The position numbers were made by a program, and so were the translations under genes. The notes beneath the pieces were generated by a model. It was not told the DNA's origin, did not search any database, and worked only from the letters and a program-made list of their open reading frames with translations. From Paracoccaceae bacterium (GTDB lineage: Bacteria > Pseudomonadota > Alphaproteobacteria > Rhodobacterales > Rhodobacteraceae), in NCBI GenBank assembly GCA_007134865.1, contig SLJW01000089.1, positions 1 to 47,752 on the forward strand: DNA of 47,752 nucleotides, in the 5' to 3' direction. Shown here piece after piece: positions 6,947 to 28,066 of the stretch. Every line of letters starts with the position of its first letter. Position 1 is the stretch's first letter.

Positions 6947-9372
<2,426 letters not shown>

Positions 9373-12529: not shown

Positions 12530-12862
12530 TCAGGCCGCTGAGAGATCGACCTCGAGATCGAGGAAAGGCGCATATTGCTGGGCGCCGAAGATATCTCCAT
12601 CGCCGGCACTGCCCGAGGGACGCGGCCGCAGAATGGTGAACTTGATCGCGAGACCGGGATCATATTCGACGAAATCGGTCAGGCGCGCAGCATCGATATT
12701 GAGCACCTTGCACACGGTTTCACGCGTCAGCGCGCCCGAACGCCGCACCAGATCATAGGTTTCGCGTTCGCGGAAGATGATGTCGAAGGTGATCTTGTCG
12801 GTCCCGGCATTCTTGCTGCGGATGGTCTTGGCAAGGCTCGCAAGTGTTGTGGGCGTGTTCAT
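12530..12862 (-). CDS. DUF4387 family protein
   Basis: This 110-residue protein matches the DUF4387 pattern: LASLAKTIRSKNAGTDKITF at the N-terminus, then FRERETYDLVRRSGALT and FVEYDPGLAIKFTILRPRPSGS. Such proteins are encoded next to, or fused behind, DUF1446 (AtuA-like) proteins and probably form a two-subunit enzyme with them. The exact reaction is not established to my knowledge. The ATG overlaps the stop of the DUF1446 gene (ATGA at 12859-12862), so the pair is translationally coupled. It is the last gene of the short sigma-54 transcription unit that starts near 14266. Confidence 0.8.
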   Translation of the reverse strand: MNTPTTLASLAKTIRSKNAGTDKITFDIIFRERETYDLVRRSGALTRETVCKVLNIDAARLTDFVEYDPGLAIKFTILRPRPSGSAGDGDIFGAQQYAPFLDLEVDLSAA

Positions 12863-14232
12863 GCCGCAGCTCCTGTGGTGACGATTTCGCTATGGGTCGG
12901 GAACAGCTCGAGCGGGTCACGCACAGCCATGGTGTGATTCAGCGTCCAGCGATAGGCGGGGCTCGCCTGCATCACTTCGTCAAGGATGAAGGACACGCCA
13001 CCGGCAGTTCCTTTCACATCAGGTAGGCGCGCATAAAAGAGCTGCCGCGTTCCGGTCATCGCGACCTCTTCGGCCATCTCGACAGTGGGGGCCACGCCCT
13101 GCACCACAACACACAACTCATGGCCGGGCTTGTCCTTGAGCGGCTCCATATCTCCCATGACACCATTGCGGCCAAAGACATTGTAATGCAGTTCCCAGCC
13201 GTGCTCGCCAAAGCGTTCGCGGGTTTGCTGGCGCGCCCATTCGATGACCGCATCGACATTTGCGATGGTATAGGGATCACGAATCCCGGCCATGCCCACG
13301 AACCGCTCGCCGATCTTGCCCGAGCCCTCGAGCTTGACCCGGATCTCCTGCGCAGGGACGAATTTCATGCCCGTTACGCGCGTGGTCTTTTCGGCGATCT
13401 GGTCGTAATGACAATCGGTCATGTCGAGCATGCCACCCGCAACGAATTCGTGGAACGGGTTGGAACGTTCATACATCGCATGCCCTGCGACCGAGGCAAT
13501 GGTGCAGCGTTGTTCGGGCGCCATGGCGGTCACATCAACCCAGTCGGGGGTGACTTCACCCAAGACGGTTTCCTTCGCGCCATAAGGTTCGGCGCAGAAG
13601 CTCGCGCATTCCAGCACCTTGCCCAGATAATAGGCCTGCGCTTCGGGGTAACCGCGATGCAGGGCAGGGGCTGCGAAAACGGCACTGTCGGAAGAGCGTC
13701 CGCCGATGATCACATCGCAGCCCTCTTCCAGCAGCTTGAGGTAAGGATGCACGCCCGCCATCGCGACGATGCGGTCGGTTGCGTCAAGTTCTTCCTCGGT
13801 CAGCTCGGCACGGGCATCCAGCCCGGTGACGGGTGCGCCGTTGCGGATGCTCGCGCGCACGCGCTCGGGGTCCACCTCGGAATAGAACCAGCCCAGGCGG
13901 AAGGGCGCGAGCTTGTGCTTGCTCGCCAGATCACGAATGATCTGCACATACATGTCCACGCGGCTGTTGCTGCCGGTATCGCCGGCGGAGCCGATGATCA
14001 TCGGTACATTGTTCTCGCGCGCAGCGAGCAGCATCAATTCCAGATCGTGCTCCTGCCAGGCGCGGGGACTGGCGCAGGTATCCGCGCCCAGAGGGCCGGG
14101 GCCAATGTCATCGCTGCCCGAATCTGCGGCAATGATATCCGGCCCGGCAGCAACACCGATCTGGAAACTGCCGTTCTTGAGGGGCGCGAAGCCCAGATGC
14201 CCGTTCGGGCTGATGACCTTCATGGATGACAT
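12859..14232 (-). CDS. DUF1446 (AtuA-like) family protein
   Basis: This 457-residue protein of the DUF1446/AtuA family is named after acyclic terpene utilisation protein A. Recognisable segments are DIIAADSGSDDIGPGPLGAD near the N-terminus, ENNVPMIIGSAGDTGSN, GCDVIIGGRSSDSAVFAAPA and YNVFGRNGVMGDMEP. GAGGCAG precedes the ATG at 14232. A -24/-12 promoter lies 34 bp upstream. With the coupled DUF4387 protein it probably forms a cytoplasmic enzyme acting on the product released by the C45 enzyme and importer of the neighbouring unit. That link rests on shared promoter type and position only. Confidence 0.85.
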   Translation of the reverse strand: MSSMKVISPNGHLGFAPLKNGSFQIGVAAGPDIIAADSGSDDIGPGPLGADTCASPRAWQEHDLELMLLAARENNVPMIIGSAGDTGSNSRVDMYVQIIRDLASKHKLAPFRLGWFYSEVDPERVRASIRNGAPVTGLDARAELTEEELDATDRIVAMAGVHPYLKLLEEGCDVIIGGRSSDSAVFAAPALHRGYPEAQAYYLGKVLECASFCAEPYGAKETVLGEVTPDWVDVTAMAPEQRCTIASVAGHAMYERSNPFHEFVAGGMLDMTDCHYDQIAEKTTRVTGMKFVPAQEIRVKLEGSGKIGERFVGMAGIRDPYTIANVDAVIEWARQQTRERFGEHGWELHYNVFGRNGVMGDMEPLKDKPGHELCVVVQGVAPTVEMAEEVAMTGTRQLFYARLPDVKGTAGGVSFILDEVMQASPAYRWTLNHTMAVRDPLELFPTHSEIVTTGAAA

Positions 14233-14265: not shown

Positions 14266-14281
14266 TGCAGCTTTTGTGCCA
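14266..14281 (-). promoter_or_regulatory. Sigma-54 (-24/-12) promoter of the DUF1446-DUF4387 unit
   Basis: On the minus strand the sequence is TGGCACAAAAGCTGCA. It has the invariant GG and GC of a sigma-54 promoter at exactly ten-base spacing and matches TGGCAC at the -24 element. It lies 34 bp before the DUF1446 start. A short inverted repeat GAGAG-TGTT-CTCTC (14282-14295) adjoins it upstream. It is nearly identical to the promoter at 22202-22218. Confidence 0.8.
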
Positions 14282-14412
14282 GAGAGTGTTCTCTCATATG
14301 CTACTGTAATTGCTGAAAATACTGGAATCGTATTCACTATTTCCCAATGCGTTACGCGCAAAAATCCCGCATTCGCGGGTGTTGCACGCAAGGCCTTGAA
14401 GCACAAGGTGGT

Positions 14413-15417
14413 TCAGAGCCCGAGTTTTTGCATCTGGTGGCGCAGAGCGTGGCGTGTCAGCTTCAACAGGCCTGCTGCCTCCTGCTGGTTGCCGCCGCTC
14501 TGCGAGAGCGCGCGCTGCACCAATTCGCGCTGGAAATCGGCCGTCGCGGCGTGAAACCCCTGATCCGCGACAGGGGTCTCGCCTGCCGGCGGGATCACTT
14601 TTGCACCCGAGCGCACAGTGCGCAGAATCCGGTCGGGCAGATGGCGCGGCAGCACCATGTCGTCATCCTCGAGGATGAAGATCCGCTCAAGCAGGTTCTC
14701 CAGCTCGCGCACATTGCCCGGCCAGGGATATTTACGCATGATCTCGGCGGTTTCCGGCGCAAGCCCACGAATTTCCCGGCCGAAAGCCATGTTGAAACGC
14801 TGTATGAAGTGTTCGGCAAGCACCAGGACGTCATCGCCGCGCTCGCGCAGGGCCGGGATGTTGAGGGCGACCACCTGAAGCCTGTAATAGAGGTCTTCGC
14901 GGAAATTCCCGCTCATGACCTCGGAGAGCAGAACCTTGTTGGTCGCGGCGATGAAGCGCAGATCGACATGCGTTGCCTTGACGGCCCCCACGCGCCGGAA
15001 CTGATGCGTGTCGAGCAAGCTCAGAAGCTTGGCCTGCAGATGCGGATCCATCTCGCGGATCTCGTCAAGAAAGACGCTGCCATGATTGGCGGCCTCCACC
15101 AGCCCGATCTTGCGTTCGCTCGCGCCGGTGAAGGCGCCTTTCTCATGGCCGAAGAATTCGGATTCCATCAACCCGGCAGGTATAGCCGCGCAGTTGATAT
15201 CCAGAAACGGCTTGTCGGCACGGCGCGAATTCTGGTGGATCATGCGCGCGAGCAGCCCCTTGCCGGTGCCGGTCTCGCCGTAGATCAGGACCGTGCGCGC
15301 AGCAGAGCGGGCGACACGGCGGGCAAGCTGGCGCAGGGTCTCAATCTTGGGGTCTTTGCCAACAAGCTCGCCGCCATAATCGGCCATCTGCGCTCCGCCA
15401 TCCTGCCGCCCGGTCAT
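14413..15417 (-). CDS. Sigma-54 activator (AAA+ enhancer-binding protein) without sensor domain
   Basis: This 334-residue bacterial enhancer-binding protein remodels RNA polymerase-sigma-54 at -24/-12 promoters. Its AAA+ domain has Walker A GETGTGKG (47-54), the sigma-54 contact loop GAFTGA (94-99), Walker B GSVFLDEI (113-120) and arginine-finger-like FREDLYYRL. The C-terminal Fis-type helix-turn-helix is GGNQQEAAGLLKLTRHALRH. Only about 18 residues precede the AAA+ core, so there is no receiver, GAF or PAS domain. Control must come through expression level or a partner protein. The ATG overlaps the stop of the C45 gene (ATGA). It lies between the two sigma-54 units and is their natural activator. 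Confidence 0.92.
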   Translation of the reverse strand: MTGRQDGGAQMADYGGELVGKDPKIETLRQLARRVARSAARTVLIYGETGTGKGLLARMIHQNSRRADKPFLDINCAAIPAGLMESEFFGHEKGAFTGASERKIGLVEAANHGSVFLDEIREMDPHLQAKLLSLLDTHQFRRVGAVKATHVDLRFIAATNKVLLSEVMSGNFREDLYYRLQVVALNIPALRERGDDVLVLAEHFIQRFNMAFGREIRGLAPETAEIMRKYPWPGNVRELENLLERIFILEDDDMVLPRHLPDRILRTVRSGAKVIPPAGETPVADQGFHAATADFQRELVQRALSQSGGNQQEAAGLLKLTRHALRHQMQKLGL

Positions 15418-16510
15418 TGCGACAAGTCAAACCGATGCCAGTTGCCCGTGCAAGGGTTTGAATCATGGAAATACACGCGCATTTGCGCAATCGCGTAGAT
15501 GACCGAGGACAGGGTGCTGGTGTCATCTGCCGTGCTCGGGTGCTGGCAGATCGGCGCGGAGCCGGGGTCATCGGGGTGTAGCGAGAGAATTGCGGCAGCT
15601 TCTGCAAGATCAGGCGGCGGACCAGAGAGGCGCGTCGTCAGGGCATCAAGGCGCAGGGCGGAATTGCTGTCGATGACAGTGCTGCCCTGCAGAAGTGTCT
15701 CTTGCGCAAGTTCGGGTGCGCGGAAATGGTTGGTGTTCCAGCTTCGCGCGCCCGTTCGGATCACAGGCCCCTGCGCGCCCAGCTCAACAGCAGCTGTGGC
15801 ACCCGTGGCATCCGCGAGGATGAGCGCACCACCCCCTGCATGCGGACGCACGCGCAGCCAGTCGAGCGCTTCGGCCACTGTCTTGCAGCTTGCGATGATC
15901 CGCGTCATGGCCAGATAGCGCAGCCAGCCAACTGCATGGTGGCGCGCGCCGATCTGGGTATCGACCAGTGCAAGGCCAGCGGCATTCATGCCGCTCGAAT
16001 AGGCGCCAGGGCTGCCAAGGCTGCCCAGGCAGAGCATCCCGCCTGTGTGGATATCCGGGCCCTGATGCCAGAAGAGCCGCTGAACGCCCAGATGCGTGCC
16101 GCTGAAGTCGCGGTTCTTGGCGACAAAGGGGCCATCGGGACTGTCGCCAACCGCAAAAGCGCTGCACCCATCACCGGTCAGCATCGCCCCGCTGGCAAGG
16201 TCGCGCAAGGTGCCAAGATGCAGATGCTCGAAAAGCGCGTCCTCCGGCAGCCCGAACCCTCCGGCAATCCCTTTCAACTCGGCCATCCCGTCGGGATCAT
16301 GCGCGCGGTGGAAGTGATATTGCGCGGCGAGATAGGCGCGCCGATCCGGGGTGAGCTTGCCCTCGCTGCGCAGTGCCTCGACCCGCGCAATCGTCGCGTT
16401 CCGGACCTTTGCGAGCAGCGCCTCATCGGCGCCCTCGGCTTGCAGCCGCCCGCGCGTATGGGCGTCGCCGGACAGGACTGGCACATGCAGGAGGGATGCC
16501 CGCGCCAACC

Positions 16511-16514
<4 letters not shown>
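15414..16514 (-). CDS. C45-family (acyl-CoA:6-APA acyltransferase-like) amidohydrolase/peptidase
   Basis: This 366-residue protein resembles the peptidase C45 / AAT family of N-terminal nucleophile enzymes, which cleave or form amide bonds after autoproteolysis. The segment GDGCSAFAVGDSPDGP places the candidate nucleophile at Cys117, followed by FVAKNRDFSGTHLG. Later come GSLGSPGAYSSGMNAAGLAL and a conserved SWNTNHF. I start at ATG 16514, whose ATGA overlaps the ATPase stop. No signal peptide is seen, so it acts in the cytoplasm on the imported compound, probably an N-acyl amino acid, small peptide or other amide. The substrate is unknown. Confidence 0.8.
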
Positions 16515-17530
<1,016 letters not shown>

Positions 17531-17533
17531 GGC

Positions 17534-18541
17534 TCAGGCCTTTTCTGTCTCTGGAACGGCGATGCGGATGCAGCGCGCGCGGCGCGCAGGGCCTGCCGGG
17601 TGCATGTCGATCAGATGGCGGCACGCCTCGCCGGCCTCCGGGCAGCGATCAAGGAAGCGGCATTGCGGTGGCAGATCGACAAGATCGGGCACCTGCCCAT
17701 CGATAGGGCGGATCGGCTGGCCGCGCAAAGCCGGGCGGGGGATCGAGGCCAGAAGCCCGCGCGTGTAGGGATGGCGCGGGTCGCGGATGACCTGTGCTGT
17801 CGGGCCTTCCTCGACCACCTGACCGGCATACATGACCATCACGCGGTCGCAATGCTCGGCCACGACGCCCAGATCATGGGTGATCAGCACCACGCTCATG
17901 CCAAGCTCGGCGCGCAGCTTCGAGATGAGTTCCAGAACCTGCGCCTGAATCGTGACATCCAGCGCCGTGGTGGGTTCATCCGCGATCAGCAGGCGCGGCT
18001 TGGATGCGAGCGCGATGGCGATCATGATCCGCTGTCGCATTCCGCCCGAGAATTCATGCGGATACTGGCGCAGCCGATCCCCAGCCGAGGGGATGCCGAC
18101 CAGTGTCAACATCTCGACCGAGCGGGCCTGAATGGCCGCGCGCCGCGCACCGCGGCGGCGCGGCAGATCATCATCATGGGCCTCGAGCATCTCGGCAAGC
18201 TGTTCGCCTACAGTGAGCGCCGGGTTGAGCGCTGTCAGCGCGTCCTGCATCGTCATCGCGATGTCGCGCCCGCGCAACGCCTGCATCTTCCGGGGAGAAA
18301 GCTTGCGCAGATCGGTTCCGTCAAAGACGATCTCGCCCGCCTCGATCCGGCCCGGCGACCGCACCAGCCCCATGACCGAGGCAAATGTGACCGATTTGCC
18401 CGAGCCGGATTCGCCCACGATACCAAGGCATTCACCGCGATTGACGGTCACATCCACCCCATCGACAGCGCAGACCTGCCCTGCGCGGGTGTCGAAGACC
18501 GTGCGCAGCCCGCGCACTTCGAGAAGAATATCGTCGCTCAT
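17534..18541 (-). CDS. Dipeptide/oligopeptide ABC transporter ATP-binding protein (DppD/OppD type)
   Basis: This 335-residue ATPase has Walker [25 protein letters not shown] signature, Walker [16 protein letters not shown] and LITHDLGVV. The C-terminal Cys cluster ([18 protein letters not shown]) is typical of DppD/OppD. Its ATG overlaps the stop of the permease gene (ATGA at 18538-18541). With the second ATPase it forms the heterodimeric motor of the importer. [20 protein letters not shown] is the Q-loop region. Confidence 0.92.
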
Positions 18542-19431
18542 TCGGTGAACCTCGGGTCAAAGGCGTCGCGCAAGCCTTGGCTGGCCACATTGATCGCCAG
18601 CACCAGCAGCAGGATCGCGAGGCCGGGGAAGGTCGAGACCCACCAGCTTTCGAGAATGAAGGCGCGGCCATCCGCCACCATCGCCCCCCATGAGGCCGTG
18701 GGCGGTTGCACGCCGAGGCCCAGGAAGGAGAGCGAGGCTTCGAGGATGATGACATGCGCCATGCGGATCGTGGCAACCACGATCACCGGCGAGAGGATAT
18801 TGGGCAGGATCTCGCGCAGCATGATATGCTTGCCCGAGGCACCGAGCGCGCGCGCGGCCTCGACATATTCGAGTTCGCGCGTGACCAGCGTTTCTCCACG
18901 CACAACGCGGCAGGGGATGACCCATTCCTTGTAAGCCAGCGCAAGGATGATATTGCCCAGTCCCGGCCCCATCATCGCCATCAGGCCGATGGCGAAGATA
19001 AGATAGGGAAAGCCCAGCAGGATATCGACCAGCCGCGAGATCACCACATCAACCCAGCCGCGCAGATAGCCCGCAGCGAGCCCGGCAAGGATGCCGATGG
19101 TGGTGGCAACAAGGATTACCGCCGCGCCGATGAAGATCGAGATCCGCGCGCCATAGATGATCCGAGACAGGATACAGCGACCCAGCGCATCGGCGCCAAG
19201 CGGATAAGCCCGGTCGCCGCCCTCCATCCATACCGGGGGTTGCAGCCGGAAGAAGAGGTTGGTCGCATAGGGGTCATTCGGCGCGATCCAGGGCGCGAAG
19301 ATTGCCATGAGCACGAAGAGCACCACCACGATCGCCGACCCGAAAGCGAGGCGGTTCTCGACAAAGGCCGCCATGTTGCGCCGGAAGAGGGACTCTGCAG
19401 CGACTGGTGCGGATTGTTCGATGACGCTCAC
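18538..19431 (-). CDS. Dipeptide/oligopeptide ABC transporter permease (DppC type)
   Basis: This 297-residue permease has a DppC-like N-terminus: a cytoplasmic stretch, a first helix (SAIVVVLFVLMAIFAPWIAP), and the periplasmic PLGADALGRCILSRIIYGAR motif (PxGTDxxGRDxxSRxxxGAR in the family). EAARALGASGKHIMLREILP is the ATPase-coupling motif. I start at GTG 19431, whose GTGA overlaps the DppB stop, the same coupling used through the operon; the frame is open upstream, but that part overlaps DppB. Family is certain and substrate unknown. Confidence 0.9.
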   Translation of the reverse strand: MSVIEQSAPVAAESLFRRNMAAFVENRLAFGSAIVVVLFVLMAIFAPWIAPNDPYATNLFFRLQPPVWMEGGDRAYPLGADALGRCILSRIIYGARISIFIGAAVILVATTIGILAGLAAGYLRGWVDVVISRLVDILLGFPYLIFAIGLMAMMGPGLGNIILALAYKEWVIPCRVVRGETLVTRELEYVEAARALGASGKHIMLREILPNILSPVIVVATIRMAHVIILEASLSFLGLGVQPPTASWGAMVADGRAFILESWWVSTFPGLAILLLVLAINVASQGLRDAFDPRFTE

Positions 19432-20441
19432 AGCTTCACCCGTGGGTTGAGGATTGTGTAGAGAATATCGGCGAAGAAATTCAGCATCACATAGATGACC
19501 GCGTAGAGCAGCACGGCGGCCTGCACGAGCGGGTAGTTGCGCACGAAGATGCTCTCGACCACGAGCCGCCCCAGACCGGGCCAGCCGAAGACCGTCTCGA
19601 TGATCATGTTCCCGCCCAGCAGGCTGCCAGTCTCGATGGCGGCAACCGATACGGTCGGGATCAGCGCATTCTTGAGCGCATGGCGCCACAGGATGCGCTG
19701 CCGGCTCAGCCCCTTGGCCTGTGCGAAGGTCACATAATCGGCACGCAGCACTTCGAGCATGGCCGTGCGCGTCACCCGCATCAGGATTGCCGTCATCGGC
19801 AGGCCAAGGGTGATGGCGGGCAGGATGATATGGGCCAAGGCGTTGCGGAAGGCGTCAAACCGGCCATTGAGGAGCGTGTCGATCAGCAGGAAATGCGTAT
19901 AGGGGGTGATGCCCTGGCTGATGCCGTAATTGATCCGGCCGGCCACCGGCAGGAGGTTGAGATGCACTGCAAAGAGCATCAACAGCAGGATGCCGAACCA
20001 GAAACCCGGCAGCGAAACGCCCAGAAGCCCGCCGACTGTCGCGATCCGGTCGAAGATCGAGTTCTTGCGCACGGCTGCCAAAACGCCCAGCGGGATCGCC
20101 GTGAACAGCGCGATCAGCATGGCGACGACAGTGAGTTCAATCGTTGCAGGCAGGCGTTCGAGGATCACCTCGGAAACCGGGCGGCGATGGTAGAAGCTCT
20201 GACCGAAATCGAATTGCAAGGCATTGCCGAGAAAGACAAAGAAACGCTCAACCACTGGCCTGTCGAGGCCGAGATCGCGACGCATCTGGGCTTCCTGCTC
20301 GGGTGTCACGATCTGGTCGCCAATCATGATCTGGACGGGGTCGCCCGGGGTAAGAGCCATCATCACGAAGACGATCACGCTCACCCCCAGCAGCACTGGG
20401 ATCAATTGCAGGAGGCGTTCGAGAAATCTGGTAAAGGTCAT
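19428..20441 (-). CDS. Dipeptide/oligopeptide ABC transporter permease (DppB type)
   Basis: This 337-residue permease shows the DppB hallmarks: first helix LLQLIPVLLGVSVIVFVMM, then LTPGDPVQIMIGDQ, MRRDLGLDRPVVERFFVFL, FDFGQSFYHRRPVSEVI, and the EVLRADYVTFAQAKGLSRQRI coupling region. CCCGGAGACC precedes the ATG at 20441. It follows the binding-protein gene after a 138-bp gap holding a strong hairpin, and its stop overlaps the DppC start. Six membrane segments are apparent. Confidence 0.92.
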   Translation of the reverse strand: MTFTRFLERLLQLIPVLLGVSVIVFVMMALTPGDPVQIMIGDQIVTPEQEAQMRRDLGLDRPVVERFFVFLGNALQFDFGQSFYHRRPVSEVILERLPATIELTVVAMLIALFTAIPLGVLAAVRKNSIFDRIATVGGLLGVSLPGFWFGILLLMLFAVHLNLLPVAGRINYGISQGITPYTHFLLIDTLLNGRFDAFRNALAHIILPAITLGLPMTAILMRVTRTAMLEVLRADYVTFAQAKGLSRQRILWRHALKNALIPTVSVAAIETGSLLGGNMIIETVFGWPGLGRLVVESIFVRNYPLVQAAVLLYAVIYVMLNFFADILYTILNPRVKL

Positions 20442-20538
20442 GCCGGTCTCCGGGGGGCAAGAGCAAGCGGCTACGCGCGACCGCGTCTGTCTTTGACAGA
20501 ATCCGGTCTACAGCGAGGGTGCACAGTGCGGCAATGCG

Positions 20539-20568
20539 CGCCGCAGGGCAATCTCTTGCCCCGCGGCG
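20539..20568 (-). terminator. Intercistronic stem-loop between binding-protein and permease genes
   Basis: CGCCGC-A-GGGCAA pairs with TTGCCC-C-GCGGCG around a TCTC loop: 12 base pairs with one mismatch, no U-run. It lies just after the binding-protein stop. The likely role is partial termination or protection of the upstream mRNA so that binding protein exceeds transporter subunits. The same arrangement occurs at 8003-8029. Confidence 0.6.
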
Positions 20569-20579
20569 ATGATATCGGG

Positions 20580-22115
20580 TCAGTCGAGGCAGGCCCGATG
20601 CAGGTTGATGCGGCTGTCCGGGCTGGGCGACCAGTTGCTCAGCCGGGTCGAGACGCCGTAGATATCCTGTGGAACCCAGAGATAGACATAGGGCACTTCG
20701 GCATTCACGAGGGCTTCCGCCTGCTGGTAGAGTTCCCCACGGCGCTCGCGGTCCAGCTCGGCCCCGGCCTCGTCGAGAAGCGCATCGAGTTCGGGGTTGG
20801 AATAGCCCGCCGAATTGCCGCGATCATTGGTCCTGTGCGTCGGCACGAAGATGTCGAACGGATCCAGCGTCGAGTTGCCCCAGGAGGTCAGATACATGTC
20901 GCCCTCCTTCTCGCCGCCCTGCGTGCGCCATTTCTGGGTCAGAAGCGTGCCTTCGCCCACTTGCACCTGTGTCGTGATCCCGGCGTTGGTCAGGAGCGAG
21001 GCAATCGCCTCGGCCGTGTCGCGCAGCGCACCCTCGGTGTCGAGCGTGACCGAGATTCCGTCAGGATAACCCGCCTCGGCCAGAAGCTCGCGCGACCGCT
21101 CCGGGTTGAATTCATACTCGGGCAGATCAGGATTCTTGCCAAAGGCATCGGGGCTCATGATGCCGTCGATCTTGGTCGCCGTGCCGCCGAGGATGCGGTC
21201 GATGATCAGATCGCGGTCAATCGCATGGGCCACGGCTTGACGCACGCGGACATCATCGAAGATATCGCCTTCGTTGTTCATCGCAAGGAAGAAGCTGCGC
21301 GTGCCATTGACGGTCATGACCTGCGCATTGGGGCTGTTCTCGACCTGATTCATCGAATGCGGCGGCAACTCGTTGATGATATGAACATCGCCCGACAGAA
21401 GTGCCGCCACGCGTGAGGCCGATTCCGGGATGACCTGGAAGATCACGCGCTCGACACAGGCCGGTCCTGCTTCCGGAATGCCGGTGGCGCCACCGTAATA
21501 GTCGTCAAACCTCTCGAGAATGACCGAGTCGCCACGCCGCCAATCCGCCAGGCGGAAGGGGCCTGCGCCCATCGCCTGCGTGGCCATCCCGGCCGAGCCA
21601 ACTTCCTCGACATGGGCTTGCGAGACGATCTGCTGATGCGGCAGCATCGCGGGCAGCAGAGGCCACGGCTCGCTCAGCGTAATGCGAATGGTGCTGTCAT
21701 CGACAATCTCGACCGACTCGACCGGCCCCAGCAGACTGCCGCGCGGGCTGGTCTGACCATCGCCCATCCCGCCTTCGAGGATCACGCGGTCGAGCGTGAA
21801 TTTCACATCTTCCACGGTCAGGCTGGAGCCGTCATGGAAGGTGATGCCCGAGCGGATGGTGAAATCATAGACGGTCGGCGAGACTTGCGTGTAGCTCTCC
21901 GCGATTTCAGGGTGGATCTGCATATCCGAAGAGCGCGTGAGGATGCCGTCATAGATGTTGCGGATGATGGTTTCGGTTTCGCGGTTGCGGTGATTGGCCG
22001 GGTCCAGCGTGTCTGCATCGCGGGTAAAGCCGACAACCAGCTCCTGTGCCTGGACGGCCGGGGCCATACAGAGCGCGATGGCTGAAGCGACAATAGTTCG
22101 GTGTATGACTTTCAT
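20580..22115 (-). CDS. Peptide-type ABC transporter substrate-binding protein (SBP_bac_5)
   Basis: This 511-residue periplasmic binding protein of the DppA/OppA family has a signal peptide MKVIHRTIVASAIALCMAPA ending at VQA-QE. It contains VGFTRDADTLDPANHR, the YDGILTRSSDMQIHPEIAES region and VYDFTIRSGITFHDGSSLT, the family signature. GGGAGACC precedes the ATG. It is the first gene of the sigma-54 unit running to the activator at 14413. It lacks the N-terminal lipid-attachment Cys, so the protein is soluble. Its ligand is unknown; the co-transcribed C45 enzyme points to a peptide-like or N-acylated compound. Confidence 0.92.
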   Translation of the reverse strand: MKVIHRTIVASAIALCMAPAVQAQELVVGFTRDADTLDPANHRNRETETIIRNIYDGILTRSSDMQIHPEIAESYTQVSPTVYDFTIRSGITFHDGSSLTVEDVKFTLDRVILEGGMGDGQTSPRGSLLGPVESVEIVDDSTIRITLSEPWPLLPAMLPHQQIVSQAHVEEVGSAGMATQAMGAGPFRLADWRRGDSVILERFDDYYGGATGIPEAGPACVERVIFQVIPESASRVAALLSGDVHIINELPPHSMNQVENSPNAQVMTVNGTRSFFLAMNNEGDIFDDVRVRQAVAHAIDRDLIIDRILGGTATKIDGIMSPDAFGKNPDLPEYEFNPERSRELLAEAGYPDGISVTLDTEGALRDTAEAIASLLTNAGITTQVQVGEGTLLTQKWRTQGGEKEGDMYLTSWGNSTLDPFDIFVPTHRTNDRGNSAGYSNPELDALLDEAGAELDRERRGELYQQAEALVNAEVPYVYLWVPQDIYGVSTRLSNWSPSPDSRINLHRACLD

Positions 22116-22201
22116 ATTTCCGAGGTCTCCCTGTTGCTCCTGCCGACCATATTGGCCGACCGGGTTGAACGGCAGGTGCGTGTAACACCTGCACCAATCT
22201 C

Positions 22202-22218
22202 ATGCAGCATTCATGCCA
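22202..22218 (-). promoter_or_regulatory. Sigma-54 (-24/-12) promoter of the peptide importer operon
   Basis: On the minus strand the sequence is TTGGCATGAATGCTGCAT minus its first base: GG and GC are ten bases apart as required. It aligns with the promoter at 14266-14281 at TGGCA, AA, GCTGCATG. It lies about 87 bp before the binding-protein start. A short inverted repeat AACAA-TACT-TTGTT (22259-22272) upstream could be part of an activator site, but this is weak. Confidence 0.75.
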
Positions 22219-22345
22219 AAAATTCAGCACGCGTGTCTAAGAGAAATTAACACACAAAAACAATACTTTGTTGATAGGGTGCCGGTAATTTGAAACCATC
22301 GAGATATTCCCGCATTGCGCGCGCTACACGCGGCAGCGTGGATTT

Positions 22346-23692
22346 TCACTCATTGTCTGCGCGCTGCATCTGTCGGGTTGTCCGGTATCTGGCGCGGCGG
22401 GCGCGCGACGATGCAAGTCCCATGGCGTCGCGATATTTGGCGATTGTGCGTCTGGCAACCTGGATGCCCTCGGTGCCGAGGTTTCCTGCCAGCGCCGCGT
22501 CGTTGAGAGGCGCCTCAGGATTTTCGGCTTCGATCAGTTCACGCAGGCGCAGGCGGACACGTTCTGCAGACACCTCCTCGGCATCTCCAGCGCCTTTCAG
22601 AGCAGCGCTGAAGAACCGCGCGAGCGGCACAGTACCCTTGGGCGTCTGCACCAGGATCGCATTGGCCACTCGGCCGACAGTGGTTTCATGCAAGCCCGCC
22701 TTGTCCGCGGCCTGTGCGCGGGTCAATGGTCGCAGCCCCGCGACACCCTTCTCCAGATACTCCGATTGCAGCGCGATTACTGCGCCGACCACTTTCAGCA
22801 CAGTGGCATTGCGCCGTGATACCGCGCGCATAATCCAGCGCGCCTCATCGCGCGCGACCTCGAAGGCGGCATCGCTGCCAATGCCTTCAGCACCCGTGCG
22901 CAGGGTGATCTCCGGGGCGGTAGACTTGTTCAGTTCGATCCGCCAGCCATCCTCTCCGGAGCGTTCGATGATCACGTCTGGCGGGCGGATCGGCGCGTCG
23001 TCGGGGGCAAAGACAAGCCCGGGCTTCGGATCGAGGCTGCGGATCTTGTTGATCAACGCAAGGATCTCGGTTGTGCTTGTGGCGCAAAGCTCTGCCAGAG
23101 TGTCGATCTTGCCACGTGCGATCAGGTCGAGATGGGCCAGCAGCATATCCATGGCCGGGCTGAGTATCCCGCGCTCGTGCGCCTGAAGCCGGAGGCATTC
23201 GGACAGATCGCGCGCGAAAATCCCGGCGGGTTCGATCTGTTGCAGCCGCGACAGAATGCGCTCGGCTTCGGTAAGGGAGCATTCTGCACGCGCGGCCAAG
23301 ACACCAAGTGGCTCGCCCAACCAGCCCGTTGGCTCCAGCGCTTCCGCAATGATGCTGGCGATACGGGTTTCCTCGGTGCTGCGAAAGGCAAGGCCGATCT
23401 CGGTCGCCACATGCGCACGCAGGCTCGCATCAGGGGCCGCAAGACGCGTCTGCGTCAGGTCGGTTCCAGCAGGTGACGCCGTTGCAGGCTGGGCAGGCAC
23501 GGGATCATTGAGGGATGGTGGCGGTAACGTGTTCAGGACAAGCGCGGGGTTCGTCTGCGCCATGGTCCTGAGTCGACGGCTGAGAGCGAGATTGTCGATC
23601 TTGAGAAAATCGATGGCCTGACGTAACGTCCCGGTCATGGCAAGGCGTCGTGCCGGGCGCATTTCCAGATGCTGTCGCGTGGTTGTTTGCAT
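22346..23692 (-). CDS. rpoN: RNA polymerase sigma-54 factor (RpoN paralogue)
   Basis: This 448-residue protein has the sigma-54 layout. A short glutamine-poor region I (RRLAMTGTLRQAIDFLKIDN) is followed by a variable acidic linker, the core-binding domain (LEPTGWLGEPLGVLA, IEPAGIFARDLSECL) and the DNA-binding domain with the RpoN box ARRTIAKYRDAMGL near residues 413-426, ahead of a basic tail. The usual box is ARRTVAKYRE, so it is slightly divergent. The start is ATG 23692; a TTG six bases upstream is less likely. The usual rpoN neighbours (lptB, hpf, ptsN) are absent, which marks it as an extra copy. Directly downstream lies a sigma-54 promoter driving the importer, so it is likely dedicated to this locus. 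Confidence 0.92.
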   Translation of the reverse strand: MQTTTRQHLEMRPARRLAMTGTLRQAIDFLKIDNLALSRRLRTMAQTNPALVLNTLPPPSLNDPVPAQPATASPAGTDLTQTRLAAPDASLRAHVATEIGLAFRSTEETRIASIIAEALEPTGWLGEPLGVLAARAECSLTEAERILSRLQQIEPAGIFARDLSECLRLQAHERGILSPAMDMLLAHLDLIARGKIDTLAELCATSTTEILALINKIRSLDPKPGLVFAPDDAPIRPPDVIIERSGEDGWRIELNKSTAPEITLRTGAEGIGSDAAFEVARDEARWIMRAVSRRNATVLKVVGAVIALQSEYLEKGVAGLRPLTRAQAADKAGLHETTVGRVANAILVQTPKGTVPLARFFSAALKGAGDAEEVSAERVRLRLRELIEAENPEAPLNDAALAGNLGTEGIQVARRTIAKYRDAMGLASSRARRARYRTTRQMQRADNE

Positions 23693-24074: not shown

Positions 24075-25337
24075 CTATCCTCCCACTACCTCCAAGGTCA
24101 GGAATTCCAGCACCATCGCGGCGGTCCAGGTGAATTGCGTCCCTCCCAGGCCTTCGCCAGTCATTGGGTCATAATATTCGGCAAATCCATTCTTGTGGAT
24201 CAGGTCGAGGCTGGATCGGGTGATCGCGCTGGACGCGCCGGTTTCGCCCGCGCGCGCCAGACCATCCGCGATCATGTAATTCACCACCAGCCAGACAGGA
24301 CCGCGCCAATAGCGTTTGGCGTCAAAACCTCGGGTATTCGGCGCATGGCTGGCCACGCGGAACTTTGTGCCATGCGCCTCGATCGTGGCGGCGATGCGCG
24401 CGGCATGCACTGCGGGGATTGGCGCGAAAGCGGCCAGAAGCCCACCCGAGGACGGGCTGTCGATCAGCGCCCCCGTGACACGGTCAAGGCAGAGATACTG
24501 GCCATGGCCCTCCGACCACAGGCTGGAAAGCGCCGCCAGCCCCGTTTCGGCCATGTTGCGGTTTTCCCGCGCCAGGTCTGGCGCGCCAAGCGCATCCGCC
24601 AGATCGGCCAAGTCCAGACAAGAGCGGATCAGGATCGCATTGAAACCGGGGTCAACCACCTGAAAGGGTGAGGCGTCGTGCAGCTTCTCGGTCTGCCAGC
24701 CAAGGTCCCGAAAACGCTCCACAAGCCAGATATACCGGTCATATTGCTCTTTGGTCGGGCGGTGCGCCGGATCGGCATGTTGGGTGTCGCGCCGCGTATA
24801 GGGGGTGATGCCCTCGGTCGGCACGCGCTCGAAGGGCACATCCCAATCCACCGAATTGTCGCGGCCCGATTCCCACGGATGGATGATCGCCACGAGCCCT
24901 GTGCCTTGCGGATCGCGGGTCGCGTGAAACCAGCGATGCCAGGCGGTGATCTGCGCCAGCAACGGCCGCGCCTTGGCGCGCAGGTCCGGCGCGCTGTCCA
25001 GCAGACGTTTCAGTGCAAATCCGGCCACAGGCGGTTGCGTGATTCCGCTGGTGGGCACGGGGCGGCGACAATCCCAGATATCGGGACCGGGGAAATAGCC
25101 CTCATCAAGCGCGTGGAAGATGATATGCGGGACCATGCCGCAGGGCCATTGATGCGCGAACAGTGTCTCGATTTCGGTCAGCGCGCGGCCCGGGTCGAAA
25201 TGGCGCTGGCCGAGCGCGGTCAGGCAGGAATCCCAGTTCCACTGGAACGGATAGAGCCCCTTGGTGGGCACAGTATAACTGCCCCGGTCGTTGATCTTCA
25301 GAATCTCGATGGCAGCGGAATGCAGCGCGTCACTCAT
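24075..25337 (-). CDS. GH63 / MGH1-like glycoside hydrolase (glucosylglycerate/mannosylglycerate hydrolase-like)
   Basis: This 420-residue (alpha/alpha)6-barrel glycosidase has signature YPFQWNWDSC (29-38), then GMVPHIIFHA, IHPWESGRDNSVDW, AKRYWRGPVWLVVNYM and GGTQFTWTAAMVLEF. Length and motifs fit the mannosylglycerate/glucosylglycerate hydrolase branch of GH63, which releases sugar and glycerate from a compatible solute; other alpha-glucosidase activities are possible. There is no signal peptide, so it works in the cytoplasm on an imported compound. Its ATG overlaps the ATPase stop (ATGA at 25334-25337), making it the last gene of the importer operon. The inferred role is breakdown of an imported glycosyl osmolyte. 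Confidence 0.8.
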   Translation of the reverse strand: MSDALHSAAIEILKINDRGSYTVPTKGLYPFQWNWDSCLTALGQRHFDPGRALTEIETLFAHQWPCGMVPHIIFHALDEGYFPGPDIWDCRRPVPTSGITQPPVAGFALKRLLDSAPDLRAKARPLLAQITAWHRWFHATRDPQGTGLVAIIHPWESGRDNSVDWDVPFERVPTEGITPYTRRDTQHADPAHRPTKEQYDRYIWLVERFRDLGWQTEKLHDASPFQVVDPGFNAILIRSCLDLADLADALGAPDLARENRNMAETGLAALSSLWSEGHGQYLCLDRVTGALIDSPSSGGLLAAFAPIPAVHAARIAATIEAHGTKFRVASHAPNTRGFDAKRYWRGPVWLVVNYMIADGLARAGETGASSAITRSSLDLIHKNGFAEYYDPMTGEGLGGTQFTWTAAMVLEFLTLEVVGG

Positions 25338-26371
25338 GCGATGGCCTTTTGCGTTTCAGGATCGAACCAGCGGATGCGGTCCGGGATCGGGGCTAGGGTG
25401 ATGACCTCACCCGGCGTGATGGCACGATCGCTTTCCAGCACAGCGCGGAAGGGCTGGCCCGCGACCTGCGCAGTGATCAGCGTATGGGGCCCCAGCGGTT
25501 CGACCACGCGCACCTCGGCCTCCAGCCCGGCCTCGGCCGGGTGCATGTCCTCGGGGCGGATGGCGAATTCGGCGGCGGCGGTCTCCGGGCCCTCGAAATC
25601 CTGCCCGGCGACCTGCCAGCGCCCGTTCTCGCTGCGCTTGGCGGGCAGGAAGTTCATCGGCGGGTTGCCGATGAAACTGCCCACAAACCGCGCGGCGGGG
25701 TTGCGATAGACCTGCGTGGGCCGGTCGGCCTGCACGATATACCCGCCGTTCATCACGCTGATACGGTCGGCGAGCGACATCGCCTCGACCTGATCATGGG
25801 TGACATAGATCGTGGTGGTCTTGCTCTCGGCCAGCACGCCCTTCAACTCGGCCCGCATCTCCAGCCGCAAGAGCGCGTCGAGGTTCGAGAGCGGCTCGTC
25901 CATCAGGATAACGTCCGGCTCCATCGCCAGCGCGCGGGCCACGGCAACCCGCTGGCGCTGCCCGCCTGAAAGCTCGCCCGAGTAGCGCTTGAGCAACTGT
26001 TCGATATGCATCAATTCGGCAGTGCGCGTGACCCGCCGCGTGACCTCGGCCTGCGGCAGCTTCGCCATGCGCAGGCCAAAGGCGATATTCTCGAAGACCG
26101 TCAGATGCGGGAACACAGCGTAATTCTGGAACACCATGGCAATCCCGCGCTCGCGCGGAGGCAGGTGATCCACACGCCGGTCGCCGATCCAGACCTCGCC
26201 ATGCGTCGGCGTCTCCAGCCCGGCGATGATGCGCAGAAGTGTGGTCTTGCCGCAGCCCGAGGCCCCCAGAAGAACCATGAATTCCTGATCTGCAATTGTC
26301 AGATCGACCGAATGCAGTGCTGTGAAGGCCCCGAAGCTCTTGGCCACACCCTTGATGACAATCTCGGCCAT
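25334..26371 (-). CDS. Sugar ABC transporter ATP-binding protein (MalK/UgpC type)
   Basis: This 345-residue ATPase has Walker A GASGCGKTT, AMVFQNYAVFPHLTV Q-loop, LSGGQRQRVAVARAL, Walker B DVILMDEPLSNLDA, IYVTHDQVEAMSLADRI and a C-terminal OB/TOBE regulatory domain (FAIRPEDMHP). This is the standard layout of CUT1 sugar importers. I start at ATG 26371 because GGGAGGGGCC precedes it; the upstream in-frame part overlaps the permease stop. It sits 13 bp after the second permease gene and overlaps the hydrolase gene. Confidence 0.92.
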   Translation of the reverse strand: MAEIVIKGVAKSFGAFTALHSVDLTIADQEFMVLLGASGCGKTTLLRIIAGLETPTHGEVWIGDRRVDHLPPRERGIAMVFQNYAVFPHLTVFENIAFGLRMAKLPQAEVTRRVTRTAELMHIEQLLKRYSGELSGGQRQRVAVARALAMEPDVILMDEPLSNLDALLRLEMRAELKGVLAESKTTTIYVTHDQVEAMSLADRISVMNGGYIVQADRPTQVYRNPAARFVGSFIGNPPMNFLPAKRSENGRWQVAGQDFEGPETAAAEFAIRPEDMHPAEAGLEAEVRVVEPLGPHTLITAQVAGQPFRAVLESDRAITPGEVITLAPIPDRIRWFDPETQKAIA

Positions 26372-26384
26372 TGGCCCCTCCCTT

Positions 26385-27227
26385 CTAACGGTTTGCGATG
26401 CCCCACATCGCGAACAGATATTTTCGCACGGCAAAGATGAAGATCAGCGCCGGCATGACCAGCGCCACCCCGCCCGCGAATTTCAGCGGCAGCGGCGAGA
26501 CATTGAGCGATTGCAGCAGAAACGCCGTCAGCGTGCGGTTCTCGATGGTCAGGACAGCCGCCGCAAACACCTCGTTCCACGAGATGACAAAGGCGAAGAC
26601 TGCGCTTGCCATGATACCTGGCAAGGCCAGTGGCAACACCACCTTGATCACTGCCTGCAGCCGGTTGCACCCCAAGGTCCAGGCCGCCTCCTCGAGCTCG
26701 ACCGGGATGCCCGAGAAGAGCGAGAAGGTGATCAGCACCGCGAAGGGCAGCGCCAGCATCGTATGCACCAGTGCGAGGCCGAGAACGGTGTCATCCAGCC
26801 CCGTGCGGATGAACATGACCGCCAATGGCAGCGCCAACAGCGGTAACGGGAAGGCGCGGGTCATGATGACCAGAATGCGGAAGAACTCCTTGCCCGGAAA
26901 ATCGAACCGCGTCAGCGCGTAGCCAGCCGGTGCTCCCATCCCGATGGAGAGCACCATGGTCAAGACCGCCACCTTGACCGAATTCCAGAGCGCCGCGGTG
27001 ACACCCTGAAAATTCCAAAAGAACTGCAGAGAGGCCAGATCGAAGCTTGGCCAGAAACGCTTGGGGAAACTGGTCACTTCGGATGGCGCAGAGAGCGCGT
27101 TGACGAACAGAAACCAGATAGGCACCAGCACCCACAGCACCAATAGCGCGATGCCGGCCCAGAACACGAACCGGCCTGCGCGATGCACATCCTCCTCACG
27201 CGGTGCGGCAATGGTCACGTCACTCAT
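26385..27227 (-). CDS. Sugar ABC transporter permease (CUT1, MalG type)
   Basis: This 280-residue permease has about six membrane segments. LVLWVLVPIWFLFVNALSAP is the first helix, with a short periplasmic region before PAGYALTRFDFPGKEFFRIL, and EEAAWTLGCNRLQAVIKVVLP is the EAA coupling motif. The ATG at 27227 overlaps the stop of the upstream permease (ATGA). A longer open frame upstream is only overlap with the neighbouring gene. With the 280-residue MalF-type partner it forms the sugar channel. Confidence 0.9.
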   Translation of the reverse strand: MSDVTIAAPREEDVHRAGRFVFWAGIALLVLWVLVPIWFLFVNALSAPSEVTSFPKRFWPSFDLASLQFFWNFQGVTAALWNSVKVAVLTMVLSIGMGAPAGYALTRFDFPGKEFFRILVIMTRAFPLPLLALPLAVMFIRTGLDDTVLGLALVHTMLALPFAVLITFSLFSGIPVELEEAAWTLGCNRLQAVIKVVLPLALPGIMASAVFAFVISWNEVFAAAVLTIENRTLTAFLLQSLNVSPLPLKFAGGVALVMPALIFIFAVRKYLFAMWGIANR

Positions 27228-28066
27228 ATCCGGGCTCCTTTCGGCACATGCAATAGCCGCAGCACCACCAGCGAAAACGCCACTGACAGCCCGAGGATCA
27301 CCATCGCATAGGCTGCCGCGACGCCCCGGTCCTGCAACTGGAACTGCCACTGGAAGGTCTCGCCCATCAGCACCGGCAGTGTGGTGCCGCCCAGCGCCAC
27401 CACCACGGCGAAGACCTCGAAGGCCATTAGGATGCGCAGGATCAGCGCTGTCTGCAGGCTGGGTCGCAGCAGGGGTAGCGTAACCTTGGTGAAGCGCTGC
27501 CAGCGCGAGGCGCCAAACACCTCCGCCGCCTCGTTGTATTCTTTCGGGATCAACCCCATTCCGGCGACAATGATCACCATCATGATCGCCGTCGCGCGCC
27601 AGATCTCGGCCAGACAGACCGCCAGGAAGATCACCCACAGGCTCTGATAGCCCAGGAAAAGCTGTGGTCGGTCGATCACGCCCATCGCGTGCAGAATGGA
27701 ATTGAGAAAGCCCGATTGTTCAAAGATCGCGAGCCAGATCAGCCCGGCAGCCAGATCGGAAATCCCCAGCGGGATGGCGAAGATATACAAGAGCCCCGAG
27801 CGCCCGGTCTTCAGCTTCTGCACCACCGAGGCCATGGTCAGCGCCATGATCAACTGCACCGGCACCACGATCGCCGCCAGCCAGACCGTGTTCCAGAAGG
27901 CCTGAGAGAATTTCCAATGCCCGGTCATGCGGCTGAAATTCTCGGTGGTCCACTCCCCGCCACGGGTCAGGCTCTCCACCACGACCAGTCCGAAGGGATA
28001 GAAGAAGAAGGCCAGCAGAAACAGCGACGCCGGCAGCAGCAGCAAATAGGGCAGTGCGCGTGCCAT
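27224..28066 (-). CDS. Sugar ABC transporter permease (CUT1, MalF type)
   Basis: This 280-residue permease opens with MARALPYLLLLPASLFLLAF, the usual first helix of MalF/UgpA-like subunits. It includes TVWLAAIVVPVQLIMALTMA and the coupling motif EAAEVFGASRWQRFTKVTLP. GGAGAGGAG precedes the ATG at 28066. It follows the binding-protein gene after 108 bp that hold a repeat element and a strong hairpin, and overlaps the next permease. Confidence 0.9.
   Translation of the reverse strand: MARALPYLLLLPASLFLLAFFFYPFGLVVVESLTRGGEWTTENFSRMTGHWKFSQAFWNTVWLAAIVVPVQLIMALTMASVVQKLKTGRSGLLYIFAIPLGISDLAAGLIWLAIFEQSGFLNSILHAMGVIDRPQLFLGYQSLWVIFLAVCLAEIWRATAIMMVIIVAGMGLIPKEYNEAAEVFGASRWQRFTKVTLPLLRPSLQTALILRILMAFEVFAVVVALGGTTLPVLMGETFQWQFQLQDRGVAAAYAMVILGLSVAFSLVVLRLLHVPKGARI

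What the first reader, a model, noticed from the sequence alone, without database searches (positions are those of the whole stretch)
14266..23692. A self-contained sigma-54 module: private rpoN, sensor-less activator and two matching -24/-12 promoters
In 9.4 kb one finds an extra rpoN outside its usual context, a sigma-54 activator, and two transcription units each with a -24/-12 element. The two promoters share TGGCA-N2-AA-N-GCTGCATG, which is more alike than chance. The genes driven are a peptide importer with a C45 enzyme and a DUF1446/DUF4387 pair. A dedicated sigma factor and activator for one catabolic or import module is an unusual, complete regulatory package that I do not know described for this gene set.
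Basis: partly seen in the sequence, partly recalled or inferred. Interest (0 to 1): 0.75.

Follow-up and report, generated by a model that had tools for sequence, protein, structure and literature searches.

The report
Sole sigma-54 tied to one cassette
This bacterium's only detected copy of an alternative RNA-polymerase specificity factor (sigma-54) sits in a conserved gene cassette with its own activator, two matching promoters and the import and breakdown genes they appear to drive, and across at least 16 genera the two promoters tend to change together as if tuned to that one factor.

Summary
On the minus strand lie rpoN, a -24/-12 promoter, dppABCDF-C45-EBP, a second -24/-12 promoter, and a DUF1446/DUF4387 pair that matches both subunits of citramalate lyase CmlAB in the PDB. 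One point is wrong: this rpoN is not extra. It is the only one found in a 95.6%-complete genome, and its partner is the only activator found there with a GAFTGA loop.

The cassette with rpoN recurs in 20 genomes, with both promoters in all 20. Within a genome the two promoters tend to share letters at -16 and -15, which differ between genomes: a hint of sigma-promoter coevolution. Four carriers outside the family have a high-scoring rpoN elsewhere. One carrier without rpoN has lost GAFTGA and shows no clear promoter.

Dedicated RpoN/activator pairs (Cereibacter sphaeroides) and one-activator systems (Lactobacillus plantarum) are known: a new variant of a known kind. Against it: RpoN's rate is not special, most other rpoN loci of the family lack a nearby activator, and relatives hold unexamined extra promoter-like sites. 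Nothing was tested at the bench.

The parts
22346..23692 (-). rpoN (sigma-54), 448 aa, only rpoN found in the genome
   Evidence: PF00309/PF04963/PF04552; RpoN box ARRTIAKYR; sole PF04552 match in G000
22316..22332 (-). enhancer-like site (UAS) CGCGTGTAGCGCGCGCA upstream of the dppA promoter
   Evidence: 17-bp palindrome TGCGTGAAnTTCACGCA found in 40 upstream regions; p 0.013 with a matrix fitted without the genus
22203..22218 (-). -24/-12 promoter of dppABCDF-C45-EBP, TGGCATGAATGCTGCA, starting 103 bp before the ATG
20580..22115 (-). dppA-like solute-binding protein, 511 aa
   Evidence: PF00496
19428..20441 (-). dppB-like permease, 337 aa
   Evidence: PF00528/PF19300
18538..19431 (-). dppC-like permease, 297 aa, 4-bp overlaps on both sides
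   Evidence: PF00528/PF12911; gaps
17534..18541 (-). dppD-like ATPase, 335 aa
   Evidence: PF00005/PF08352
16511..17530 (-). dppF-like ATPase, 339 aa
   Evidence: PF00005/PF08352
15414..16514 (-). C45 autoproteolytic acyltransferase/hydrolase, 366 aa
   Evidence: PF03417; NF040521 over cut-off
14413..15417 (-). sensor-less sigma-54 activator (bEBP), 334 aa, GAFTGA, Walker A GETGTGK, Fis-type HTH; last gene of the operon, 4-bp overlap with C45
   Evidence: PF00158/PF02954; motifs; gap
14374..14390 (-). enhancer-like site TGCGTGCAACACCCGCG upstream of the AtuA promoter
14355..14371 (-). second enhancer-like site TGCGGGATTTTTGCGCG, 19 bp from the first
   Evidence: p 0.003 with a matrix fitted without the genus
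14266..14281 (-). -24/-12 promoter of the AtuA/DUF4387 pair, TGGCACAAAAGCTGCA, starting 49 bp before the ATG
12859..14232 (-). AtuA (DUF1446) protein, 457 aa, near full-length match to citramalate lyase subunit CmlA (PDB 9erq_A)
   Evidence: PF07287; phmmer E 2.9e-76 over residues 3-452
12530..12862 (-). DUF4387 protein, 110 aa, match to citramalate lyase subunit CmlB (PDB 9erq_B)
   Evidence: PF14330; phmmer E 3.4e-21 over residues 6-106

Best explanation
The cassette is a self-sufficient sigma-54 circuit with, in this genome, one client. RpoN, made from its own promoter, takes core RNA polymerase to two -24/-12 promoters. The sensor-less activator binds palindromic sites upstream of them (centres about 82-106 bp before the promoters in the window, 57-124 bp across relatives) and uses its GAFTGA loops and ATP hydrolysis to open both. 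This produces the importer, the C45 hydrolase, more activator (a positive feedback loop) and a CmlAB-like lyase. Shown by computation: the parts, their conservation, the sites, and the covariation of the two promoters. Inferred: binding, activation, feedback, and the substrate (an imported amide- or ester-linked compound that the C45 enzyme cuts and whose 2-hydroxy-acid part the CmlAB-like pair splits). How the circuit is switched is open: with no sensor domain, control by activator amount or by an unidentified partner is the likeliest.
For: rpoN-dppABCDF-C45-EBP-AtuA-DUF4387 in 20 genomes, own included (cut by contig ends in G016, G027 and G192, where G192 lacks a seen dppC). Both promoters in 20 of 20, best site 9-11 of 11 consensus letters, GG and GC being required by the scan; second-best sites in the same stretches score 4-9. 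A palindrome in all 40 upstream regions, best-site scores 7.4-16.5, log-likelihood ratio 260 at width 15 against 19-24 in six letter shuffles; p 0.003-0.020 in 8 of 8 genus regions with a matrix fitted without the genus. Within-genome match of the two promoters at -16: 0.90 against 0.29 permuted, p 5e-5, and with 13, 8 or 6 clade representatives p 1.5e-4, 0.0021, 0.0076; at -15 p 1e-4 to 0.016; spacer columns -20 to -17 none below 0.06. One rpoN and one GAFTGA activator in the own genome. G245: no rpoN, GSFAGA in place of GAFTGA, no clear -24/-12 site before dppA or AtuA.
Against: No transcription data. The genome is a draft of 271 contigs, 95.6% complete. The covarying columns were chosen after the promoters had been seen and rest on few independent changes (6-13 clades). 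Unexamined further hits of the promoter pattern in G016, G027 and G030 may mean other clients there. In the whole window the best match to the enhancer matrix lies inside dppF at 17343, above the real sites. Module RpoNs are one clade in a 45-row tree (80/92) but not in a 118-row quick tree, where 13 other RpoNs nest among them. rpoN has the highest dN/dS of the module in 8 of 8 pairs (0.12-0.47), but other RpoN pairs overlap this (0.10-0.26), so rate is no evidence of dedication. G137 has one rpoN but a second GAFTGA activator. No enhancer-like site before rpoN in the window (p 0.33).
Confidence: 0.75

Rival explanations
1. This rpoN is the genome's ordinary general sigma-54, serving further promoters; its place beside the cassette is incidental.
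For: It is the only rpoN in the genome. Sites with other -12 letters were not scanned genome-wide. Three relatives have further hits of the promoter pattern, not examined.
Against: No second GAFTGA activator found. 25 of 37 genus genomes have no rpoN match at all, so a general sigma-54 function is not kept in the genus. The gene stays with the cassette in 20 genomes. Promoter letters covary with the genome.
Confidence: 0.15
2. The cassette is as described but not orthogonal: any sigma-54 could serve its promoters, and the shared -16/-15 letters reflect drift or common descent.
For: Outside the family the cassette occurs beside a high-scoring rpoN elsewhere in the genome. GG and GC are canonical throughout. 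Few independent changes; columns chosen after seeing the data.
Against: Covariation at -16 and -15 holds with six clade representatives (p 0.0076 and 0.016) while spacer columns show p 0.33 to 1.0 there.
Confidence: 0.3
3. The activator works without sigma-54, as reported for HupR of Rhodobacter capsulatus (passage of PMC3162934), and rpoN is a bystander.
For: G245 keeps the genes and an activator with Walker A but without GAFTGA, and has no rpoN.
Against: GAFTGA, or GSFTGA in G231, in all 20 activators of rpoN-bearing cassettes, with -24/-12 sites in 20 of 20.
Confidence: 0.03
4. Linkage of rpoN to its activator and client is a general habit of the family, so nothing is specific here.
For: Four genus genomes carry an rpoN in what looks like a di-iron monooxygenase cluster. 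17 of 80 other family rpoN loci have a GAFTGA activator in the fetched stretch of up to 20 kb.
Against: 63 of those 80 have none, though some stretches are cut by contig ends; 40 more loci were asked for and not obtained.
Confidence: 0.15

Closest known systems
Specialised RpoN/activator pairs of Cereibacter (Rhodobacter) sphaeroides (RpoN1/NifA, RpoN2/FleQ, RpoN3/AprX; PMC11999139, outline, abstract and passages seen)
   Same: A dedicated sigma-54 with a cognate activator and its own promoters in Rhodobacterales; a promoter letter reported to help discriminate; module RpoN is sister to a group with one RpoN of a C. sphaeroides-like genome.
   Different: There four rpoN in one genome, activator AprX with a REC domain, and a discriminating letter at -11. 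Here 13 of 20 carriers have one rpoN, the activator is sensor-less, all parts lie in one cassette, and the covarying letters are at -16/-15.
One-activator sigma-54 systems (Lactobacillus plantarum, Chlamydia trachomatis; passages of PMC3162934)
   Same: A sigma-54 system with a single activator; in L. plantarum controlling sugar uptake.
   Different: Other phyla; here in Alphaproteobacteria, with the sigma gene in the cassette and recurring as a unit across genera.
rpoN beside soluble methane monooxygenase genes with mmoR/mmoG in methanotrophs (recalled; only a search listing seen)
   Same: rpoN and activator linked to the genes they drive.
   Different: Other genes; a monooxygenase-linked rpoN does occur in this genus.
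PspF-type sensor-less activators (biology recalled; NCBIfam PspF models matched below cut-off)
   Same: AAA+ domain plus HTH, no sensor.
   Different: PspF is held by PspA (recalled); no such partner was looked for or seen here, and the equivalog cut-off is not met.
Citramalate lyase CmlAB (PDB 9erq, 9evf; names and sequence match only)
   Same: Both subunits match the AtuA/DUF4387 pair over nearly full length.
   Different: Activity and substrate of this pair untested.

Membership tests
Sigma-54 (RpoN) | AID, core-binding and DNA-binding domains | tested here: met
   PF00309, PF04963, PF04552 over cut-off; TIGR02395 313.4 bits, cut-off 277.35
Sigma-54 (RpoN) | RpoN box | tested here: met
   ARRTIAKYR in the window; same or one to two letters off in the 20 module RpoNs
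Bacterial enhancer-binding protein | AAA+ domain with Walker A/B and GAFTGA | tested here: met
   PF00158 217.2 bits; motifs (relatives)
Bacterial enhancer-binding protein | HTH domain | tested here: met
   PF02954
Bacterial enhancer-binding protein | Binding to upstream sites | tested here: inconclusive
   Conserved palindromes; binding itself not testable here
PspF | Equivalog score of the family model | tested here: not met
   TIGR02974 251.1 bits, cut-off 443.55; NF008622 213.6, cut-off 529
Specialised RpoN paralogue (C. sphaeroides type) | More than one rpoN in the genome | tested here: not met
   One in the own genome; met in 7 of 20 rpoN-bearing carriers
Specialised RpoN paralogue (C. 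sphaeroides type) | Cognate activator and discriminating promoter letters | tested here: inconclusive
   Linkage and covariation only
Citramalate lyase CmlAB | Two subunits, AtuA-like and DUF4387 | tested here: met
Citramalate lyase CmlAB | Lyase activity on citramalate | not testable with these tools

The most novel reading that the evidence does not exclude
A portable, self-sufficient sigma-54 cassette: a lineage that has lost general sigma-54 keeps the sigma factor for one nutrient operon only, and freed from other customers each copy of RpoN has drifted together with its two promoters into a private -16/-15 code, giving a natural set of mutually orthogonal sigma-54/promoter pairs.
Probability: 0.4. 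Interest if true: 0.7.

Novelty: new variant of a known kind. Interest (0 to 1): 0.55.

Why it matters
Sigma-54 usually serves many promoters, so its promoter preference is hard to evolve and hard to study. Here 20 diverged RpoNs each sit with two conserved promoters whose letters tend to change together. If the dedication is real, sigma-54 promoter specificity, and how orthogonal sigma factors arise, become directly testable by swapping natural pairs. The 17-bp enhancer-like motif, the compact activator and the short units would also make a small transferable transcription system. The CmlAB match gives a lead on the function of a DUF4387 pair, a term that no paper in the library search held.

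Tried and rejected
Idea that RpoN evolves unusually fast because it is dedicated: rpoN has the highest dN/dS of the module in 8 of 8 pairs, but seven pairs of other RpoNs in the genus and one Neoroseomonas pair give 0.10-0.26, overlapping the module's same-genus values of 0.12-0.25. Module pairs across genera reach 0.47, but their neighbours rise too and dS is often near or above 1. Dropped.

Idea that every divergent rpoN of the family is packed with its activator: 17 of 80 fetched non-module loci show one. A first script with too strict a pattern gave 3 of 80 and is superseded.

The five non-module, non-monooxygenase RpoNs of the genus, first taken as nitrogen-fixation type: four group near a second RpoN of the C. 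sphaeroides-like genome and one elsewhere. Their role was not settled.

G245: the enhancer-like site before AtuA (p 0.02) lies within 140 bp of the AtuA start, in the end of the activator gene, and is inconclusive. A score-9 site overlaps the start of its C45 frame, and a score-8 site lies 257 bp before AtuA; neither was taken as a promoter. The stretch before its first gene is short.

G618 and G660: one score-9 site each (in G618 inside the activator gene) and no enhancer match above 9 in the 4 kb held.

A GAFTGA DNA pattern misses GSFTGA/GAYTGA variants (it misses G231's own module activator), so activator counts outside the own genome are lower bounds. All 23 hits outside the cassettes were translated. 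Five are judged activators: G361, G448, G316, G261 (each with more than one rpoN) and G137 (one rpoN). One more with a Walker A-like string (G215) is judged not an activator from its surroundings.

Paper searches turned up no description of this cassette in their listings: rpoN with R. sphaeroides terms, DUF1446/DUF4387, RpoN1-3, Rhodobacterales/EBP terms, rpoN with 6-aminopenicillanic acid (0 papers), paralogue/coevolution terms, citramalate lyase with AtuA (swamped by unrelated words) and alone. Also run: sMMO/mmoR and L. plantarum. Papers seen: PMC11999139 (outline, abstract, passages), PMC12316311 and PMC3162934 (passages); others only as search listings with abstract starts.

Full report
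Anatomy. All ten genes lie on the minus strand: rpoN 22346-23692, dppA 20580-22115, dppB 19428-20441, dppC 18538-19431, dppD 17534-18541, dppF 16511-17530, C45 15414-16514, activator 14413-15417, AtuA 12859-14232, DUF4387 12530-12862. From dppB to the activator the genes overlap by 4 bp or lie 3 bp apart; rpoN and dppA are 230 bp apart, dppA and dppB 138 bp, activator and AtuA 180 bp. The two -24/-12 sites lie in the 230-bp and 180-bp gaps. The activator is therefore expected to be made from a promoter that it activates itself, and rpoN lies outside that unit.

Is it extra? No. PF04552 finds one rpoN in this genome of 95.6% completeness. PF00158 gives ten matches. Among the proteins translated only the module's has GAFTGA; one weak match (C176) was not translated. 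The GAFTGA DNA pattern occurs once in the genome, in this activator, as does its reversed control by chance. In the genus, 25 of 37 genomes have no rpoN match at all and 11 of 37 have one over the cut-off. In the sampled family 130 of 394 genomes have one over the cut-off.

Recurrence. The activator has close orthologues (86-99% identity) in 3 of 35 same-genus genomes and a match at E 1e-90 or better in 18 of 394 family genomes, own included. Sixteen of those 18 carry rpoN next to dppA (in G192 on a separate short contig with dppA). With three further genus genomes and Maritimibacter sp. HL-12 that makes 20 rpoN-bearing cassettes, from at least 16 genera. Some frames missing from the quick gene picks were found by tblastn. 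The outer open frames differ from genome to genome but were not compared systematically. In 13 of the 20 the cassette's rpoN is the only one over the cut-off. G245 and G103 have rearranged cassettes without rpoN in them. Outside the family, Neoroseomonas lacus and N. eburnea and two of the 385 class genomes carry the activator with cassette neighbours. Each of these four has one high-scoring rpoN (221-230 bits), not in the fetched cassette stretch.

Promoters. In all 20 rpoN-bearing cassettes the best site before dppA and before AtuA scores 9-11 of 11 consensus letters, GG and GC being required; second-best sites in the same stretches score 4-9. The site starts 79-104 bp before dppA and 47-57 bp before AtuA. 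Both Neoroseomonas have two sites scoring 9-10, G103 one (AtuA), G245 none above 8. G245 has no rpoN and its activator reads GSFAGA in place of GAFTGA, with Walker A intact: a natural case in which the sigma factor, the activator loop and clear promoters are all missing together.

Genome-wide. TGGCAYNNNNGCTGCA has 3 hits in the own genome, 2 of them the cassette promoters; the third is inside a coding frame. G016, G027 and G030 have 4, 7 and 5 hits, two each being the cassette promoters; the others were not examined. The reversed pattern has none in the four genomes.

Covariation. The agreement was noticed first and tested afterwards. Within a genome the two promoters agree at -16 in 18 of 20 cases (0.90, permuted 0.29, p 5e-5) and at -15 in 12 of 20 (p 1e-4), while single columns from -20 to -17 give p 0.19-0.51. 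With one row per tight clade (13, 8, 6 rows) -16 stays at p 1.5e-4, 0.0021, 0.0076. The four spacer columns together give p 0.098 in all 20, 0.063 in 13, 0.15 in 8 and 0.39 in 6 rows. The own genus reads GCT in both promoters, G448 and G075 TGT, G177 and G316 CCT, G261 CTT.

Enhancers. A palindromic motif search in up to 168 bases before each of the 40 promoters converged on TGCGTGAAnTTCACGCA at width 17 (log-likelihood ratio 303); at width 15 it gave 260, against 19-24 in six letter shuffles run with fewer starts. The best site per region scores 7.4-16.5 and is centred 57-124 bp upstream of the promoter; a second, weaker site about 20 bp away is often seen (not counted). A matrix fitted without the genus, though started from the consensus of all, found the sites in 8 of 8 genus regions, p 0.003-0.020 against dinucleotide shuffles. 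The window has one clear site before dppA and two before AtuA. In the whole window the matrix has four matches above 8.5; the best is inside dppF at 17343. Of other carriers, G103 has a perfect site before AtuA (p 0.005) and both Neoroseomonas have one before dppA (p 0.015) but not before AtuA (p 0.10, 0.65). Upstream of rpoN, 3 of 19 scored regions have p below 0.05, the window's not (p 0.33), so rpoN is probably outside the activator's control.

RpoN history. In a 45-row tree the 19 full-length module RpoNs form one clade, support 80/92 (not starred), sister to 13 others that include one RpoN of G114. In a 118-row quick tree the same 32 rows group together but the 13 nest among the module RpoNs. 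G114's two large contigs have the sizes that I recall for the C. sphaeroides 2.4.1 chromosomes, and it has four rpoN, so it is probably that species. Within the cassette rpoN has the highest dN/dS in 8 of 8 pairs, but other RpoN pairs overlap its range.

Function. The AtuA and DUF4387 proteins match both chains of PDB 9erq, named citramalate lyase subunits CmlA and CmlB. The C45 enzyme matches the autoproteolytic acyltransferase/hydrolase family and no solved structure at E 0.01. The binding protein's solved relatives include AgaA, YliB, oligopeptide, haem, agrocinopine and dipeptide binders, so the imported compound is not settled.

Verdict. The dedication claim is strengthened by conservation, enhancer-like sites and covariation, and by the absence of any other detected sigma-54 or GAFTGA activator in this genome. 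It remains a computational inference. Dedicated RpoN/activator pairs are known in C. sphaeroides (PMC11999139), and single-activator systems in L. plantarum and Chlamydia (PMC3162934).

Noticed in passing
L143-L146 (G022, G025, G031, G003): Four genomes of the genus carry another rpoN in what looks like a soluble di-iron monooxygenase cluster (Pfam run on proteins of G022 and G031 only; the other two have frames of the same or nearly the same sizes). In G031 a GAF-domain sigma-54 activator and a chaperonin gene lie nearby.
   Followed up: partly
L226 (G245), 7720-8688: An orthologous activator with GSFAGA in place of GAFTGA in a genome without any rpoN match; it may have switched to another sigma factor.
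   Followed up: partly
window 12530-14232: The DUF1446/DUF4387 pair matches citramalate lyase CmlAB (PDB 9erq), a lead on the role of this pair.
   Followed up: partly
L340 (G114:C5): An rpoN of a C. sphaeroides-like genome, in the sister group of the module RpoNs, lies between frames that look to me like a selenouridine synthase and a hydantoinase (recalled, not searched), with no activator hit in the 20 kb fetched.
   Followed up: no
L229 (G316:C1), L230 (G361:C5): Second, very divergent rpoN genes in two cassette carriers, each with its own GAFTGA activator about 6-7 kb away.
   Followed up: no
window 24075-28066: Frames that look like a sugar-type ABC transporter and a glucosidase-like protein (read from the translations, not searched) lie directly upstream of rpoN; pieces of them are also there in G030 but were not seen in the other cassette loci, G027 being cut by the contig end.
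   Followed up: no
G016, G027, G030: 2, 5 and 3 further hits of the cassette-type promoter pattern outside the cassette, possible extra clients of the sigma factor.
   Followed up: no
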